A stretch of DNA of 64,000 nt, taken from NCBI GenBank assembly GCA_027451865.1, contig DAIDHW010000001.1, positions 434,353 to 498,352 on the forward strand, in the 5' to 3' direction. The notes below the pieces were generated by a model that saw nothing but the letters and a program-made list of their open reading frames with translations, had not been told where the DNA came from and ran no database searches. Shown one piece after another: positions 5,349 through 21,558 of this stretch. Position numbers and translations under genes: made by a program. Source of the stretch: Leptolyngbyaceae cyanobacterium clean351 (GTDB lineage Bacteria > Cyanobacteriota > Cyanobacteriia > DAIDHW01). Within the stretch, counting starts at the first letter, position 1. Each line of letters opens with the position of its first letter.

Positions 5349-5722
5349 GGGAAGGAAGTCAGCGAGGGAGTTGCAAGGGGTAATAACCTTGAGGAAAGTC
5401 CGGGCTCCCAAAAGACCACACTTGCTGGGTAACTCCCAGTGCGGGTGACCGTGAGGATAGTGCCACAGAAATATACCGCCGTACAAGCACTTGTGCGGTA
5501 AGGGTGCAAGGGTGCGGTAAGAGCGCACCAGCAGGATCGTGAGGTCCTGGCTAGGTAAACCCCGGTGGGGAGCAAGGTCGATGGAACTACGGGTTGGTCT
5601 GTTTCCCCGTTCCGTTATCGGAGCCGCTAGAGGTGCTTGGCAACAAGCATCCCAGATAGATAACTCCCCCCTTAACGCTTAGTTAGGGGAACAGAACCCG
5701 GCTTATGTCTGACTTACTTCCC
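5349..5722 (+). ncRNA. rnpB: RNase P RNA, bacterial type A
   Basis: This is the catalytic RNA of ribonuclease P, which removes 5' leaders from precursor tRNAs. The conserved 5' core GAGGAAAGTCCGGGC begins at 5391, an AGAGCGCACCAGCA block lies at about 5520-5533, and the 3' core ACAGAACCCGGCTTAT lies at 5691-5706. The P1 helix is visible: 5349-5362 (GGGAAGGAAGTCAG) pairs with 5709-5722 (CTGACTTACTTCCC) with one mismatch, and this sets the ends. The ~374-nt length fits the cyanobacterial gene. It is squeezed between the caspase-like gene and menE, so it may be cotranscribed or have a promoter inside the upstream ORF. Confidence 0.96.
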
Positions 5723-15002: not shown

Positions 15003-15347
15003 CTAGGGGAGGTCTAGGTACTGCTCTAGGTCAGCCTTGAGTTGGCTAAGGTCAGCCTCTGTGGCCACAGACAGGTGTTGGTCCCGGACGGTAATTAGCA
15101 CCTTAGCCGCAAAGGGGGTTGGCCAGATGTTCGGGTTACAGAACACCTCAAGAAACACTTCCCCCCGGTGACGATACTCAAGAGCCGGTTGAGGTGCAGG
15201 TCGCGGGCCTCGGCTTCCCGGCGGCTGGGCCACCGCCCTTAACCGCTGCAGGAGCTGCTCTAGGGCCTGCTGCAGATCCTGGGCAGCTGCCGGGGTAAAC
15301 TCGAAGGTCACAGCTCCCCCCCCTAGGTGCAGGGTGAAATTTGCCAT
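15003..15347 (-). CDS. Conserved hypothetical protein, 114 residues
   Basis: I do not recognise a named family. Residues 1-20 look like beta strands ([12 protein letters not shown]), 20-45 a Gln/Leu-rich helix, then a Pro/Arg linker and a second beta-alpha unit ending YLDLP. The start ATG at 15347 is clean, and coding density and CTAG use match the neighbours, so it is probably a real gene in an operon with leuB. No catalytic motif or signal peptide is evident. Confidence 0.6.
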
Positions 15348-15544: not shown

Positions 15545-18500
15545 GTGGTCAGTAATCAGGCTTCCCTCTGGGGGCAAGTGTTTGAGGTAGCGGTCCAGCG
15601 AGGGGTCCTAGCCTACCTGATCCATCAAGGCTGGCTGACTGAGACCGACCCAGCCCTCAAAACCTGGCAGGGAGTGAAGGTAGACCAAGTTTTGGCTGCT
15701 CTGGGGACTGGTCTTAACTTACGTGACGAATACGCCCAGACTTGGGCTAAATCCACCTGTCATCACCTGCTGGTGCTCGGCTACGGCTTGGGCTGGACAG
15801 TGGCCCGAGAATCCGGGATCTACCGCAGCTTCTCCCTCAAGGCGCTTTGGTGCCCCCTGACCCTACCCGGACAACCGGAACCCCAGCTAGCGCTTGCCCA
15901 AGCATTTAGCACAGCCTTCGCTCTCCCCGGTGCTCCCGAGGCCAGGTTATTAGGACGGGGTCAACCCGCTAGGGCAGATTTCTTGGCTTGGTTTACCGAG
16001 GACGGGCGCGCGGGAGTGCACCATCATCTCCTGTGTCTTGAGTTTTCCTATAACAGCGAGGTGGGCTTGGCAGATTTCAATGCCCCGGCTACCCATCAGC
16101 GGGAAATCAGCCGCTACGCCCAGTACCAGGAGCGCAGGGGGGTGTTCTCGCGGATCCGAGCGGAGGTAGAGGGTGATGAATTTCTCCTGAGCGCTAACCT
16201 GCCCGACCACTTGAGTGTCTTCAGTAGTATAGATAAACCTCTATTTAAGCTTGCTCAGGCATCCTCCTACCTAGAGAGCCTGGTGAGTATTTTGCGGGGT
16301 TGCCACCGTCTTGATGGTCTTTGCACTGCCAAGGCGGTGGCCGTGACGGCCAACGGTTGTGAAAGTATTGCGGCTCGCTTTGATCCAGGCTGTCCTGACC
16401 CCCGAGCTGACTTGATGGCTAGTCTTGGTAAAGCCTACCGCACTCTCCACCGGACCCGGGAGTACGTACCGGCAGAGTTAGACCAGGAGATTCGCCTAGT
16501 ATTTCGCAAGCTAGTCCAGTCCTTACCGACCCAGTTGCGCAGCCAAATCCAAGGCCTCTTGGACCTGAGGCAGCTAGACCAACCCCTAGAGTTTCGAGTT
16601 AGCGAGGAGGTAACCGACTTTTACAATTCCATGGCCCCCCTAGACCGCCACCAGGTGATCGCCAGGGTGGCTGGTGAAACCTGGGGAGAAGACTTTACCG
16701 GCCGCTTTGTCCAAGCCCTTGGACCTGCCCCCTGCCCCCCCCTGCGCCAGGTCCACAGGGCGGCGGTGGTCGCTGCCCTCCAGGCAGCGGTGGCGGGGCG
16801 GTTGAACCTGATTGCCCTAGAGGGAAACCCCGGTATCGGTAAGACTACGGCGGTGATGGATTTTCTGCGGGAAGACCCAAACGGCTACCTGTTTGTGTAC
16901 TTCAGTCCCCGGGTAGCCATTAATGAGGAGGTCAGGGCCAAAATGGCCGCCGACCCTAGCCGGGGTATCCTCACTTTGACCACCAGTGCCAACTTGATTC
17001 GTTCGGCTGCCAACTACTACCATCAAGGCCCAGCTGGCAAGCGTGAGAGTGCCGTAGAGGTAGCGGGGGTGGAGGGTTTGAACTTGCCTGCCAGTGTGGT
17101 TGCCTTCTTGACCCCTGAACAGGCCGCAGCCCTGCAAAGACCGGGCACTTCTAAACGACAGAAGTGTTCTCTCAATGAACGGGACGATGCCTTGACTGTC
17201 GAGCGGTTACCCGGGGTAGTCCGGACCCTAGCCCTAGCTGCCCGTGATCTCCTCGGGGCTAACCCCGCCCTACAGCGGGTGGTGGTCACGGCTGCCATCC
17301 AAGGCTACCGCTCCCTGGCCCACACCACCACCATTGCAGCCCTCAGCCAATTATTTCGTCATCGAGCCACCAGCCCTCGAGGCCAGCAGGAGCGCCAAGA
17401 GTTTGCCCGGCGCTTGCCGACGGTTATCGTCATGGTTGATGAACTAGCAGGGGACAGCGCCGGGGCCCCCCTGACCCGGGACTTAGCCGACTGGCTGAAG
17501 GGGCAATTCCTAGACCCTTTTGACACCTCCCCCTTCCGAGTAATTTTGCTTCTCTCCGATGCTTCCCTGAGCAACGAGGTAGCCCTTAACAGTTACCTGA
17601 GAGCCGGTACCTACGCTCCTGACAAGGTGCTTATCAGTAAACGCTCTAGTCCCTACCCCTTTCAAGTCACCACTACCCATACCAAGGTCGGCGAACGTAG
17701 ACACCCCCTGCTGCACATTCTTGCCTACAGTTACCCTGCCGCCACCCTACAAATCGACTACAGCCTGCGGCTGATACCCCTGCCCCTAGACCATCAGCGA
17801 CCAGCCCTGCGCCAGGCAATCTATAACCAGACTGATGAAACCCTCAGTCACGCCCGCACTGAAATCACCCAAGCCCTAGACCAAGGGTCAACGCAAATTA
17901 TCTTCTTTGCCCAGGACCGGGCCTTCCTGCGCAAACTCCGCCTGGAGTTAACAAAGGAAATCTTACCCCCTGACCAGGTAGCTATCCTTGATCAAAATAC
18001 CTCCCCTCAAGACCGCCATGAAATGCTCTTGACCGAGCGCCGGGATCTAATACGGGTATTTTTAATCACCTCCTCAGGAACCCGGGGTATCTCCTTCCCC
18101 AAAACTGACCGGATTATCATCTTAATGCCCCGCTTCCAGGTGGAATCATCCCTGATGGAATTAGCCCAGCTCATCTACCGCGGCCGCGGTCTATACCGTG
18201 ACCCAGCCACGGGACAGGAGAAATCGGGAGACGATGTCAACCGCCGTGTGGTGATCTTGATTAATGATTACGTGGCAGTGGATGAACAGCAACAGGTGAG
18301 TTTCTTGCGCCAATGGCTGCGCCTGGCAACGGACCTGGTGACCCTGCTAATGATGCTGCGGGCCACTATTTACACCCGGATTAAGGGGGATGCGGGTCTG
18401 CGTCGGCAGCGCCTCGGGTTTGTGCCGGTCGGCTCAATTGCCGCCCAAGACTTTTTTGACCCCATGTCCGCAGATGTACAAGGTTTTCTACGGGAAGCTC

Positions 18501-19267
18501 GCGTGGCTAGTTACGAGTCTGCGGGTAATGCGGGCCTCCTGCAGCGGACAATTACCCTCACAGAAACTCTGTTTTCCGGGTTGCAATTGACTGGACACTC
18601 CCCCTATTTGCACTCTCGTTCCTACGCTGACCCAGCCACTTTACAAGTCCTCACCGAGGCTCTCACCCAAGATGAGGGGCCCCTATTAATTTACCCCCGT
18701 CGCCAGGCGGATCCTTTAGAGATTCCTGAGTGTATTAGTTGCACGGGACCGCTATGGCTAGAGGACTGGGAGGACCGCCACGTTCAAGAGCAATTTATCT
18801 TCCCGACCTGGAATAGCAGCGTGGCTGAAGCCTGGAAAACTTTGGCCGGTTGCCTGCGAGAAATCTCCACCCACCCCCAGCTGCCGCTGCAGTTGCAACA
18901 ACGAGCTCGGGAAGTACATAGGCTAGTCGGCCACTGGGTGGACGGTAGGCGTGAGCATTCGGTGATTCAGATCCTGGAAAACAGCCGAATGACAATTCTT
19001 TTGCCCGTAGACTACCCACGTTTTTATCCTCCCCATTCACCAAGTTTCTGTCTGGAGAACCAGAACTCCTGGCGCGAATCATTAGCGAGTGTGATACCCT
19101 ACCAGGGGTTAGTATTACCAGTAGTTGCTAGGTATCATTCTTTCCCCTGGGCAGCCCTGAGAATCCCTCGGGGACAGGGAATTCAAGACAGCCTAAAAGA
19201 TGATCAATATTTCATGGCATCTGGTGAGCTGAATATGCTGAATATGGTCCTTTTAGAGGAGGAGTGA
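15545..19267 (+). CDS. Large SF2 helicase-like ATPase of unknown function
   Basis: 1240 residues, GTG start at 15545 with a good AGGAG ribosome site at 15532-15536. The centre is a superfamily 2 motor: Walker A GNPGIGKTT (427-435), Walker B-like VDELAG (631-636), LLLSDAS (about 670, motif III-like), motif V TSSGTRGISFP (842 on) and motif VI QLIYRGRG (875-882). The N-terminal ~420 residues contain a region with Asp then LLCLEFSYN (about residues 140-170) that faintly recalls a PD-(D/E)xK nuclease core with the Lys missing. The C-terminal ~340 residues are unassigned. No methylase, nuclease or cas gene is adjacent; cyAbrB follows 105 bases on. It could be a defence or DNA-maintenance enzyme, but I cannot name its role. 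Confidence 0.8.
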   Translation: MVSNQASLWGQVFEVAVQRGVLAYLIHQGWLTETDPALKTWQGVKVDQVLAALGTGLNLRDEYAQTWAKSTCHHLLVLGYGLGWTVARESGIYRSFSLKALWCPLTLPGQPEPQLALAQAFSTAFALPGAPEARLLGRGQPARADFLAWFTEDGRAGVHHHLLCLEFSYNSEVGLADFNAPATHQREISRYAQYQERRGVFSRIRAEVEGDEFLLSANLPDHLSVFSSIDKPLFKLAQASSYLESLVSILRGCHRLDGLCTAKAVAVTANGCESIAARFDPGCPDPRADLMASLGKAYRTLHRTREYVPAELDQEIRLVFRKLVQSLPTQLRSQIQGLLDLRQLDQPLEFRVSEEVTDFYNSMAPLDRHQVIARVAGETWGEDFTGRFVQALGPAPCPPLRQVHRAAVVAALQAAVAGRLNLIALEGNPGIGKTTAVMDFLREDPNGYLFVYFSPRVAINEEVRAKMAADPSRGILTLTTSANLIRSAANYYHQGPAGKRESAVEVAGVEGLNLPASVVAFLTPEQAAALQRPGTSKRQKCSLNERDDALTVERLPGVVRTLALAARDLLGANPALQRVVVTAAIQGYRSLAHTTTIAALSQLFRHRATSPRGQQERQEFARRLPTVIVMVDELAGDSAGAPLTRDLADWLKGQFLDPFDTSPFRVILLLSDASLSNEVALNSYLRAGTYAPDKVLISKRSSPYPFQVTTTHTKVGERRHPLLHILAYSYPAATLQIDYSLRLIPLPLDHQRPALRQAIYNQTDETLSHARTEITQALDQGSTQIIFFAQDRAFLRKLRLELTKEILPPDQVAILDQNTSPQDRHEMLLTERRDLIRVFLITSSGTRGISFPKTDRIIILMPRFQVESSLMELAQLIYRGRGLYRDPATGQEKSGDDVNRRVVILINDYVAVDEQQQVSFLRQWLRLATDLVTLLMMLRATIYTRIKGDAGLRRQRLGFVPVGSIAAQDFFDPMSADVQGFLREARVASYESAGNAGLLQRTITLTETLFSGLQLTGHSPYLHSRSYADPATLQVLTEALTQDEGPLLIYPRRQADPLEIPECISCTGPLWLEDWEDRHVQEQFIFPTWNSSVAEAWKTLAGCLREISTHPQLPLQLQQRAREVHRLVGHWVDGRREHSVIQILENSRMTILLPVDYPRFYPPHSPSFCLENQNSWRESLASVIPYQGLVLPVVARYHSFPWAALRIPRGQGIQDSLKDDQYFMASGELNMLNMVLLEEE

Positions 19268-19340
19268 GAGCAAAGTTTCGGGAGGGGAGAAGTGAAGCTG
19301 GGTTTGTAAACTTTACTCCCGAGAACTTAGAGTAGTCTGT

Positions 19341-19346
19341 TATGAT
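19341..19346 (+). promoter_or_regulatory. Candidate -10 box of cyAbrB
   Basis: TATGAT lies 27 bases before the cyAbrB ATG, in AT-rich DNA, and no clear -35 is present. It suggests that cyAbrB has its own promoter and is not only read through from the helicase gene. Confidence 0.4.
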
Positions 19347-19372
19347 ATAAGACTGTAGATTTATTTCCCCTT

Positions 19373-19783
19373 ATGGCCTCAGCTTCTAGCCAACCTTTGA
19401 CCGGTAAAGCCCTGCTCCAAAAACTCAAGGAACTTCCTCACCTATCCCGGCGTGAGATAGCAAAAGCCTGCGGGTACTATACTGAAGGCAGAGGTGGTCG
19501 GGCAAGGGTCAACCTAACTGAATTTTATGACGCCATCCTGGCCGCCAAGGGAATTCCCATCAATCCTGATGCCCATAAAGACAGTCGGGGTAGAGAACCT
19601 ACCTACCGTATCACTGTGCACAAAAATGGTCAAATTGTCATCGGCTCGGCCTACACGGAAGGTATGGGTCTCAAACCCGGAGACGAGTTTGAAATCAAAC
19701 TCGGTTACAAGCATATTCGTCTGATCCAAACCGGGCACCAGGGGGAGGCTAATGGATTTGAGGTAGGGCCAGGCCGACTTTAG
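19373..19783 (+). CDS. Cyanobacterial AbrB-type transcriptional regulator (cyAbrB)
   Basis: 136 residues. The N-terminal region (LTGKALLQKLKELPHLSRR, about residues 8-27) and the mid-section with GYYTEGRGGRARVNL are hallmarks of the cyAbrB family; the C-terminal ~50 residues form the swapped-hairpin DNA-binding domain ending KLGYKHIRLIQ. CyAbrBs are abundant global regulators linked to nitrogen and carbon metabolism and development in cyanobacteria. The domain order is inverted compared with Bacillus AbrB, as is normal for this group. Which paralogue (cyAbrB1 or cyAbrB2) is not decided here. Confidence 0.93.
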   Translation: MASASSQPLTGKALLQKLKELPHLSRREIAKACGYYTEGRGGRARVNLTEFYDAILAAKGIPINPDAHKDSRGREPTYRITVHKNGQIVIGSAYTEGMGLKPGDEFEIKLGYKHIRLIQTGHQGEANGFEVGPGRL

Positions 19784-20034: not shown

Positions 20035-21558
20035 TTGCTGTCCCCTGACTTCCCCCAGTTTCTCTCCTTGGCCACCCAAGGTAACTTTATTCCGGTCTAC
20101 CAAGAGTGGGTGGCCGACCTTGATACTCCAGTATCAGCTTGGTATCGCGTCTGTGCTGACCGCTCCTACAACTTCCTACTTGAGTCAGTGGAAGGGGGGG
20201 CAAACCTGGGCCGCTATAGTATTTTGGGCTGCGACCCCCTTTGGATCCTGGAAACCCGGGGTGCAATCACTACCCAGACCCATCGTGATGGTCAAGTAGA
20301 AGTATTTAACGGTGACCCCTTTGGGGTTCTGAAGCATTGCCTACAGCCCTACCAGCCGGTTAAACTTCCCCAGCTACCGCCAGGCATTGGGGGGCTGTTT
20401 GGTTACTGGGGCTACGAACTGATCTCCTGGATTGAGCCGCGGGTTCCTACGCACCCTCTCCAGGCTCAGGATCTGCCAGATGGTCTGTGGATGCAGGTAG
20501 ACCACCTCCTAATCTTCGACCAGGTGCAGCGCAAGATTTGGGTGGTGGCCTACGCCGATCTGCGCAGTGGCGACCCAGGACAAGCTTACCAAACTGCCTG
20601 TGACCGGGTGCGAGACCTAGTGGCACGACTAAGTGCACCCCTGCCAGCAGCCTCTAGCCTTTTGAGCTGGAGAGCACCGGATCACTCCCAGCCTCAGCTT
20701 GCATACCAGAGCCCCATTTCCCCCAGCCAATTTTGTCAGGGAGTAGAGCGGGCCAGAAAGCTGATCTACGCTGGAGACATTTTCCAGGTCACCCTATCTC
20801 AACCCCTAGAGGCGGTCTACTCTGGTCATCCCTTTGACCTATATCGCTCCCTGCGCTTGATCAACCCTTCTCCCTACATGGCCTACTTCCAATGGGGAGA
20901 CTGGCAAATGATTGGTTCTAGTCCAGAGGTAATGGTAAAGGCCGAGCGGGATGGGAGTGGCAAAATGACCGCCACCCTCCGGCCCATCGCCGGCACCCGG
21001 CCCCGCGGTGCTGACCCAACTGCTGATGATGCCCTAGCCCAGGAACTGCGTCAAGACCCCAAGGAAGTGGCTGAACACATTATGTTGGTGGACTTGGGGC
21101 GCAACGACTTAGGACGGGTCTGTCGCCAAGGCACCGTGCGTGTGGAAGACCTGATGGTAGTGGAGCGCTATTCCCACGTCATGCATCTAGTCAGTCAGGT
21201 GACAGGGGAGCTCGATTCAGACAAAGGGGCGTGGGAATTAATGAAAGCCTGCTTCCCAGCCGGTACTGTCAGTGGCGCCCCCAAAATCCGGGCCATGGAA
21301 ATCATTTATGAACTGGAGGGGGCCCGCCGGGGTCTGTACGCAGGGGCCTACGGCTACTACGACTTTGAGGGTCAGTTGAACACGGCGATCACCATTCGTA
21401 CCATGGTTGTAACCCCCAGGAATGGAGCTGACCACCTAGTGAGAGTGCAGGCCGGGGCCGGGTTAGTAGCGGACTCCCAACCCGAACGAGAGTATCAAGA
21501 AACCCTGAATAAGGCTCGGGGAATGTTGGAGGCGATCCGTTGCTTAGCTAAACCTTAA
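20035..21558 (+). CDS. trpE: Anthranilate synthase component I
   Basis: 507 residues. It converts chorismate and ammonia (from TrpG) to anthranilate, the first step of tryptophan synthesis. The chorismate-binding domain is clear: YAGDIFQVTLSQ, SPEVMVKAERDG, PIAGTRPRG, HIMLVDLGRNDLGRV, and FPAGTVSGAPKIRAMEII. The N-terminal regulatory region has LLESVEGG, in which the Ser of the LLES element is the usual tryptophan feedback site. A TTG start is used at 20035. TrpG is not fused and not in the window. Confidence 0.96.
   Translation: MLSPDFPQFLSLATQGNFIPVYQEWVADLDTPVSAWYRVCADRSYNFLLESVEGGANLGRYSILGCDPLWILETRGAITTQTHRDGQVEVFNGDPFGVLKHCLQPYQPVKLPQLPPGIGGLFGYWGYELISWIEPRVPTHPLQAQDLPDGLWMQVDHLLIFDQVQRKIWVVAYADLRSGDPGQAYQTACDRVRDLVARLSAPLPAASSLLSWRAPDHSQPQLAYQSPISPSQFCQGVERARKLIYAGDIFQVTLSQPLEAVYSGHPFDLYRSLRLINPSPYMAYFQWGDWQMIGSSPEVMVKAERDGSGKMTATLRPIAGTRPRGADPTADDALAQELRQDPKEVAEHIMLVDLGRNDLGRVCRQGTVRVEDLMVVERYSHVMHLVSQVTGELDSDKGAWELMKACFPAGTVSGAPKIRAMEIIYELEGARRGLYAGAYGYYDFEGQLNTAITIRTMVVTPRNGADHLVRVQAGAGLVADSQPEREYQETLNKARGMLEAIRCLAKP

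What the first reader, a model, noticed from the sequence alone, without database searches (positions are those of the whole stretch)
15545..19783. 1240-residue SF2 helicase-like protein of unknown role followed by cyAbrB
The complete SF2 core is visible (GNPGIGKTT at 427, DELAG at 632, TSSGTRGISFP at 842, QLIYRGRG at 875) inside long unassigned flanks. The N-terminal region has an Asp and a Glu-Phe-Ser placed like a weak PD-(D/E)xK core. It has none of the usual helicase partners and is followed by a global regulator. Size, flanks and lack of a named family make it a candidate for an undescribed defence or maintenance factor; the pairing with cyAbrB may be chance.
Basis: partly seen in the sequence, partly recalled or inferred. 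Interest (0 to 1): 0.65.

Follow-up and report, generated by a model that had tools for sequence, protein, structure and literature searches.

The report
Argonaute-linked nuclease-helicase, split from partner
The orphan-looking helicase is half of a previously unnamed two-gene system: elsewhere it sits directly behind a gene for a hidden, highly divergent Argonaute-like protein, which in this cyanobacterium lies 330 kb away, so it probably belongs to a guide-directed machine that destroys foreign DNA.

Summary
A 1240-aa ORF (15545-19267, +) carries all the named SF2 motifs. Its N-terminal D145 and E166-x-S168 are conserved across 52 homologues, together with an invariant Q238xxxY242. The "no partner" reading is true only inside the window. 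In 54 of 58 homologous loci the gene follows a ~1000-aa gene, most often overlapping or touching it, with no convincing Pfam, NCBIfam or PADLOC match. An AlphaFold2 model of that partner (pLDDT 85.5, pTM 0.87) hits only Argonaute/PIWI structures among its 50 best PDB matches (best E 1.1e-6). Conservation suggests an intact guide-binding MID glutamine and a dead PIWI active site. In the window's genome the partner survives intact, 332 kb away, and branches at the same place as the helicase in congruent trees (r = 0.99). The pair occurs in cyanobacteria (helicase in 53/386 genomes), Pseudomonadota, Chloroflexota and Bacillota; plasmids carry it too. It is analogous to DdmDE, ApsAB and pPIWI-RE, but fails membership tests for each. 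Best reading: a new Argonaute plus nuclease-helicase interference system. Defence is inferred, not shown: neighbours are not enriched for defence genes, and many Nostocales copies sit among core genes. The cyAbrB pairing is chance.

The parts
15545..19267 (+). 1240-aa protein: N-terminal nuclease-like region, central SF2 helicase core, conserved C-terminal region; second component of the two-gene system
   Evidence: 48% identity over full length to G050 and G017 homologues
15545..16810 (+). N-terminal region (aa 1-422), candidate RecB-like PD-(D/E)xK fold
   Evidence: AF2 model pLDDT 84.5; Foldseek not significant, but AddB, MGME1, Dna2, MspJI, HinP1I and PaqCI recur among the weak hits
15977..15979 (+). 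D145, invariant, just before a predicted beta hairpin (candidate catalytic Asp)
16040..16048 (+). E166-F167-S168: [E/D]-x-S at the end of the hairpin, in place of [D/E]-x-K
16235..16270 (+). invariant K231, K235, Q238 and Y242 on one predicted helix (QxxxY; possible migrated Lys)
16823..16849 (+). helicase motif I (Walker A) GNPGIGKTT
17438..17452 (+). helicase motif II DELAG
17555..17566 (+). helicase motif III-like SDAS
18068..18100 (+). helicase motif V TSSGTRGISFP
   Evidence: Pfam Helicase_C aa 779-876
18167..18190 (+). helicase motif VI QLIYRGRG (arginine finger region)
18197..19264 (+). C-terminal region (aa 885-1240), conserved across the family, no known domain
19373..19783 (+). cyAbrB regulator; neighbour by chance, not part of the system
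   Evidence: PF14250 110 bits; no cyAbrB among near neighbours of 73 homologous loci

Best explanation
The gene encodes the effector of a two-component, guide-directed interference system against foreign DNA (plasmids, possibly phage). Component 1 is a ~1000-aa divergent Argonaute-like protein; in this genome it is at G000:C1:118121-121129, outside the window. It binds a short guide in a MID pocket built around an invariant Gln-Gly, finds complementary DNA, and cannot cut because its PIWI acidic residues are missing. Component 2 is the window protein. It is recruited to the opened target, loads on a strand with its SF2 motor, unwinds, and nicks or degrades the DNA through its N-terminal PD-(D/E)xK-like domain. 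Shown: gene pairing, congruent evolution, the Argonaute/PIWI fold (by prediction and structure search), the SF2 core, and the conserved residues. Inferred: guide binding, recruitment, nuclease activity and the foreign-DNA target. In this genome the two genes have been separated by rearrangement, yet both are intact.
For: Linkage: 54 of 58 loci have the partner upstream, most with a gap of -4 to +30 nt; 49 of 53 helicase-bearing cyanobacterial genomes also hold the partner. The window's genome holds an intact 1007-aa partner, 42% identical to the G050 one. Fold: partner model pLDDT 85.5, pTM 0.87; all 50 listed PDB matches are Argonaute/PIWI, 61 hits at E <= 0.001. MID Gln-Gly in 57/57, R687 in 52/57, K or Q at 708 in 49/57; no conserved Asp at predicted PIWI beta-1 or the end of beta-4. 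Trees congruent: distance correlation 0.997 overall, 0.991 within clade I, G000 pair in the same place. N-terminal predicted topology and D145, [E/D]166-x-S168, Q238xxxY242. Spread: 53/386 cyanobacterial genomes in 34/143 genera, further phyla, plasmids including conjugative ones. Decayed copies and a copy interrupted by an Eco57I-type RM gene. Known precedents with the same division of labour: DdmDE (PMC12409362) and ApsAB (PMC11096173).
Against: Foldseek finds no significant match for the N-terminal region (best E 0.26), and the catalytic Lys of D/E-x-K is Ser; nuclease activity may be absent. Neighbours are not enriched in PADLOC families compared with genes from arbitrary positions of related genomes. 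Many Nostocales copies sit in a conserved purQ/FUR ... trpE/psaD context, which fits vertical inheritance. TM-scores to solved Argonautes are modest (at most 0.43 by target length). No phage or viral-contig copies were found.
Confidence: 0.6

Rival explanations
1. A guide-directed regulator or RNA/DNA-hybrid maintenance machine rather than defence: the Argonaute-like protein and the helicase act on the cell's own R-loops, transcripts or replication intermediates, and the N-terminal domain is structural, not a nuclease.
For: Fixed chromosomal neighbourhood across ten Nostocales-type loci; no defence enrichment among neighbours; retention of both halves after separation in a small 2.48-Mb genome; Lys of the D/E-x-K motif replaced by Ser.
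Against: Present in only 53/386 cyanobacterial genomes and so not essential to the phylum; spread over several phyla and on plasmids; many broken copies; DdmDE and ApsAB, with the same division of labour, remove plasmids (PMC12409362, PMC11096173).
Confidence: 0.2
2. A distant subtype of DdmDE/ApsAB, homologous to them beyond what was detectable here, with the nuclease domain moved to the other end of the helicase.
For: Same two parts: a catalytically inactive Argonaute-like protein and an SF2 helicase with a PD-(D/E)xK-like domain. ApsB also carries a conserved Gln-Gly in its MID-like motif, and ApsAB-like systems are reported in some cyanobacteria (PMC11096173).
Against: Opposite domain order (DdmD/ApsA nuclease is C-terminal) and opposite gene order (the Argonaute-like gene is downstream of apsA). 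Motif VI is QLIYRGRG against QAVGRVER in ApsA. No chain named DdmD or DdmE among PDB profile hits at E <= 10 and no PADLOC match naming them.
Confidence: 0.15
3. A rearranged pPIWI-RE triad in which the restriction endonuclease has fused to the helicase.
For: Same three activities predicted for pPIWI-RE: REase fold, SF2 helicase, PIWI (PMC3702460).
Against: No match to the RNaseH_pPIWI_RE family in the partner or in the window's genome; profile comparison with one pPIWI-RE protein not significant; no conserved four-Cys Fe-S cluster typical of DinG; PIWI gene first, not last.
Confidence: 0.05

Closest known systems
DdmDE plasmid-elimination system
   Same: Two genes; inactive Argonaute-like sensor plus SF2 helicase-nuclease effector (PMC12409362)
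   Different: Nuclease C-terminal in DdmD, candidate nuclease N-terminal here; no detectable sequence similarity
ApsAB anti-plasmid system
   Same: Argonaute-like protein with a MID-like Gln-Gly motif plus helicase-nuclease; broad, patchy spread (PMC11096173)
   Different: Domain order and gene order reversed; helicase motifs differ (QAVGRVER, DELH against QLIYRGRG, DELAG); ApsB is reported to lack the RNase H fold of PIWI, whereas the partner modelled here matches Argonaute/PIWI structures
pPIWI-RE triad (REase, DinG, pPIWI-RE)
   Same: Combination of REase fold, SF2 helicase and PIWI (PMC3702460)
   Different: Two genes, PIWI-like gene first; not DinG; no RNaseH_pPIWI_RE match
Canonical prokaryotic Argonautes (long pAgo)
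   Same: Argonaute/PIWI fold by structure search
   Different: Not detected by Pfam Piwi; no significant profile similarity to 15 cyanobacterial pAgos (E 0.92); catalytic Asp positions not conserved

Membership tests
Long pAgo / Piwi (PF02171) | Sequence match to the Piwi profile | tested here: not met
   no match in the window's genome
Long pAgo / Piwi (PF02171) | MID-PIWI fold | tested here: met
   AF2 model with Foldseek: 50 of 50 listed hits are Argonaute/PIWI, probability 0.97-1.00; by prediction, not experiment
Long pAgo / Piwi (PF02171) | Catalytic DEDX tetrad | tested here: not met
   no conserved Asp in predicted PIWI beta-1 or at the end of beta-4 in 57 sequences; positions assigned from secondary structure, not from superposed coordinates; inactive pAgos are known, so this does not exclude the superfamily
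Long pAgo / Piwi (PF02171) | MID guide 5'-end pocket (Y/R-K-Q-K) | tested here: inconclusive
   Gln-Gly 57/57, Arg 52/57, Lys or Gln at 708 in 49/57; 3D geometry not checked
DdmDE / ApsAB | Argonaute-like partner encoded next to a helicase-nuclease | tested here: met
   (nuclease part inferred; not adjacent in the window's own genome)
DdmDE / ApsAB | Sequence similarity to DdmD/DdmE or ApsA/ApsB | tested here: not met
   no such chain named in PDB profile searches at E <= 10 and no such PADLOC hit; ApsA/ApsB and a direct DdmD profile were not available
DdmDE / ApsAB | PD-(D/E)xK nuclease C-terminal to the helicase | tested here: not met
   candidate nuclease residues lie at aa 145-242, before the helicase; the C-terminal region was not modelled
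DdmDE / ApsAB | Plasmid elimination | not testable with these tools
   needs an experiment
pPIWI-RE system | RNaseH_pPIWI_RE domain (PF13032) | tested here: not met
pPIWI-RE system | DinG-type helicase with Fe-S cysteines | tested here: not met
   only one Cys (541) between motifs I and II in the window protein and no conserved four-Cys cluster
PD-(D/E)xK nuclease superfamily (N-terminal region) | D ... [D/E]xK on the beta hairpin of an alpha-beta-beta-beta-alpha-beta core | tested here: inconclusive
   D145 and [E/D]166 conserved and placed at a predicted hairpin, but Lys is Ser; Foldseek not significant
SF2 helicase | Motifs I, II, V, VI and Helicase_C | tested here: met

The most novel reading that the evidence does not exclude
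A previously unrecognised lineage of the Argonaute/PIWI superfamily, invisible to sequence profiles and found in the sampled cyanobacteria at least as often as Pfam-recognisable Argonautes, works with a dedicated nuclease-helicase as a guide-directed anti-plasmid or anti-phage system that arose independently of DdmDE, ApsAB and pPIWI-RE.
Probability: 0.45. Interest if true: 0.85.

Novelty: new variant of a known kind. Interest (0 to 1): 0.72.

Why it matters
It adds a sequence-invisible branch to the Argonaute world. It would be a further helicase-nuclease partnership with an inactive Argonaute-like sensor besides DdmDE/ApsAB and pPIWI-RE, and it suggests that this design evolved more than once. 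In the cyanobacterial samples searched the helicase was found in 53 of 386 genomes, against 17 of 194 for Pfam Piwi (the samples differ), so a sizeable share of cyanobacterial Argonaute-type systems may have gone unannotated. It may bear on plasmid instability and transformation barriers in cyanobacterial biotechnology.

Tried and rejected
Lone maintenance helicase: rejected by the near-universal partner gene. Functional pairing with cyAbrB: rejected, no other locus has it. Defence-island argument: tested with 120 neighbours against 120 control genes in PADLOC; no enrichment (the control set matched even more families), so not used as support. Only family totals, not per-gene hits, could be read from that test. 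Phage origin: no match in 50,697 phage records or in a viral-contig scan. Recent acquisition by composition: helicase GC 0.57 against 0.58 for the window. DinG/pPIWI-RE membership and canonical pAgo membership by sequence: not met. Sequence profiles against the PDB gave only weak generic helicase hits and nothing meaningful for the partner. A lookup of DdmE by name in PADLOC failed, so whether that library holds DdmD/DdmE models was not verified. Foldseek against viral structures gave nothing significant.
Full report
Observation. The ORF 15545-19267 (+) encodes 1240 aa from a GTG preceded by AGGAG. All four quoted helicase motifs are present at the quoted residues. Pfam sees only Helicase_C at its threshold and a sub-threshold P-loop; NCBIfam and PADLOC see nothing. 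cyAbrB follows at 19373-19783, then trpE at 20035-21558.

A partner gene. Besides the window's own genome, three of 96 searched genomes have homologues in the first search, two at 48% identity over the full length. In all three the helicase gene directly follows a gene of 1006-1062 aa with no convincing family match. A wider scan found the helicase in 53 of 386 cyanobacterial genomes, 34 of 143 genera (this count includes fragments), and the partner in 49 of those 53. A scan of GTDB genomes gave 73 loci, including Methylomonas, Chromatium, Ramlibacter, Cupriavidus, Thauera, Ktedonobacteria and several Bacillota. Of 58 loci with a helicase ORF of at least 900 aa and enough upstream sequence, 54 have the partner ORF upstream, most overlapping by a few nt or within 30 nt, one 5.7 kb away.

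Split in this genome. The window genome has no partner next to the helicase, but one intact copy (1007 aa, TTG start) at G000:C1:118121-121129, 332 kb away on the same contig. Both genes keep the conserved residues of their families. Helicase and partner trees are congruent: distance correlation 0.997 over 52 pairs and 0.991 within the window's clade, against permutation maxima of 0.21 and 0.75. The G000 helicase and the G000 partner both branch at the base of the same cyanobacterial clade, both on long branches. The two genes were therefore separated but share one history. G211 is a second case, with the genes on different contigs and at least 5 kb of flank on each.

What the partner is. Sequence profiles fail. 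The AlphaFold2 model of the partner from Phormidium sp. FACHB-1136 (L092:6786-9977), built on 57 homologues, has pLDDT 85.5 and pTM 0.87. Foldseek against the PDB returns 61 hits at E <= 0.001, and each of the 50 listed is an Argonaute or PIWI protein (Siwi, Mili, human Ago1-4, yeast, Archaeoglobus, Aquifex), best E 1.1e-6, probability 0.97-1.00. TM-scores are modest, as expected for a distant relative. In the predicted MID region Gln723-Gly724 are invariant in 57 of 57 and Arg687 is found in 52 of 57. The only stretch that a non-significant profile comparison with canonical pAgos aligned (E 0.92) puts this Gln on the invariant MID Gln of pAgos. At the predicted PIWI beta-1 and the end of beta-4, where catalytic Asp residues should be, none is conserved. 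Guide binding without cutting is the natural inference.

What the window protein adds. The core is SF2. The N-terminal 422 residues model at pLDDT 84.5: helices, then a mixed alpha/beta domain whose hairpin (146-154, 157-167) is preceded by D145 and ends in E166-F167-S168, followed by a helix carrying K231, K235, Q238 and Y242. D145, K231, K235, Q238 and Y242 are invariant in 52 homologues; 166 is Glu or Asp in nearly all; 168 is Ser in over 90%. This resembles a RecB-type PD-(D/E)xK domain with its QxxxY helix but with Ser for Lys; K231 or K235 may substitute (inference). Foldseek gives no significant match, though AddB, MGME1, Dna2 and restriction enzymes recur among the weak hits. The nuclease call is therefore a hypothesis.

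Spread and context. Clade I contains cyanobacteria and Pseudomonadota (plus one metagenome bin labelled Actinomycetota); clade II contains cyanobacteria, Chloroflexota and Bacillota. Copies lie on plasmids of Acinetobacter, Acetobacter, Cupriavidus, Trichormus, Nostoc and others, some conjugative. One Nostoc plasmid copy lies near a Ser/Thr kinase, a PLD-like protein and a DncV-like nucleotidyltransferase. G050 has type I RM genes downstream, and G257 has an Eco57I-type RM gene between the two halves. Against this, a controlled PADLOC comparison shows no defence enrichment, and ten clade II loci share a purQ/FUR neighbourhood, while five loci have trpE nearby. Decayed copies are common. The picture is of an accessory system that is sometimes mobile and sometimes long settled in a chromosome.

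Comparison. The division of labour matches DdmDE (DdmE inactive pAgo, DdmD helicase with C-terminal nuclease; PMC12409362) and ApsAB (PMC11096173), and the ingredients match pPIWI-RE (PMC3702460). Domain order, gene order, motifs and lack of sequence similarity keep it out of each by the tests made here. It works like DdmDE (inferred); it is not shown to be a member. No paper found in the searches made here describes this family, although the ApsAB paper mentions ApsAB-like systems in cyanobacteria and its lists could not be compared.

Confidence. The helicase with its conserved partner gene: about 0.97. The partner being Argonaute/PIWI-like: about 0.9. An active N-terminal nuclease: about 0.5. 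Defence against foreign DNA as the main role: about 0.6.

Noticed in passing
window 20035-21558: trpE lies two genes downstream of the helicase; five other loci (L100, L114, L122, L126, L143) also have trpE within three genes of the system, and G257 has a trpG-like gene beside it. Probably coincidence or a shared insertion region.
   Followed up: partly
L192:9679-12843: An Eco57I-type restriction-modification gene is nested between the Argonaute-like and helicase genes (genome G257).
   Followed up: partly
L137:8180-11527: A single 1116-aa ORF joins the N-terminal part of the Argonaute-like protein in frame to the C-terminal part of the helicase; the helicase N-terminal domain and Walker A and the partner's MID-PIWI are lost, so probably a deletion remnant.
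   Followed up: partly
L097 and L120: Tandem copies: partner-helicase-partner(-helicase) arrays in Microcoleaceae genomes.
   Followed up: no
L141:4716-14090: Both genes broken into many fragments in Hormoscilla sp. GM7CHS1pb, a decayed copy.
   Followed up: no
L148:14931-25683: Downstream of the system on Trichormus variabilis ATCC 29413 plasmid C lie two large hypothetical proteins and an SNF2-type helicase, a possible further defence operon.
   Followed up: no
window 15003-15347 (-): Divergent 114-aa ORF between leuB and the helicase, with no clear family.
   Followed up: no
window 5355-5720: Bacterial class A RNase P RNA (Rfam RF00010, 258.7 bits).
   Followed up: no
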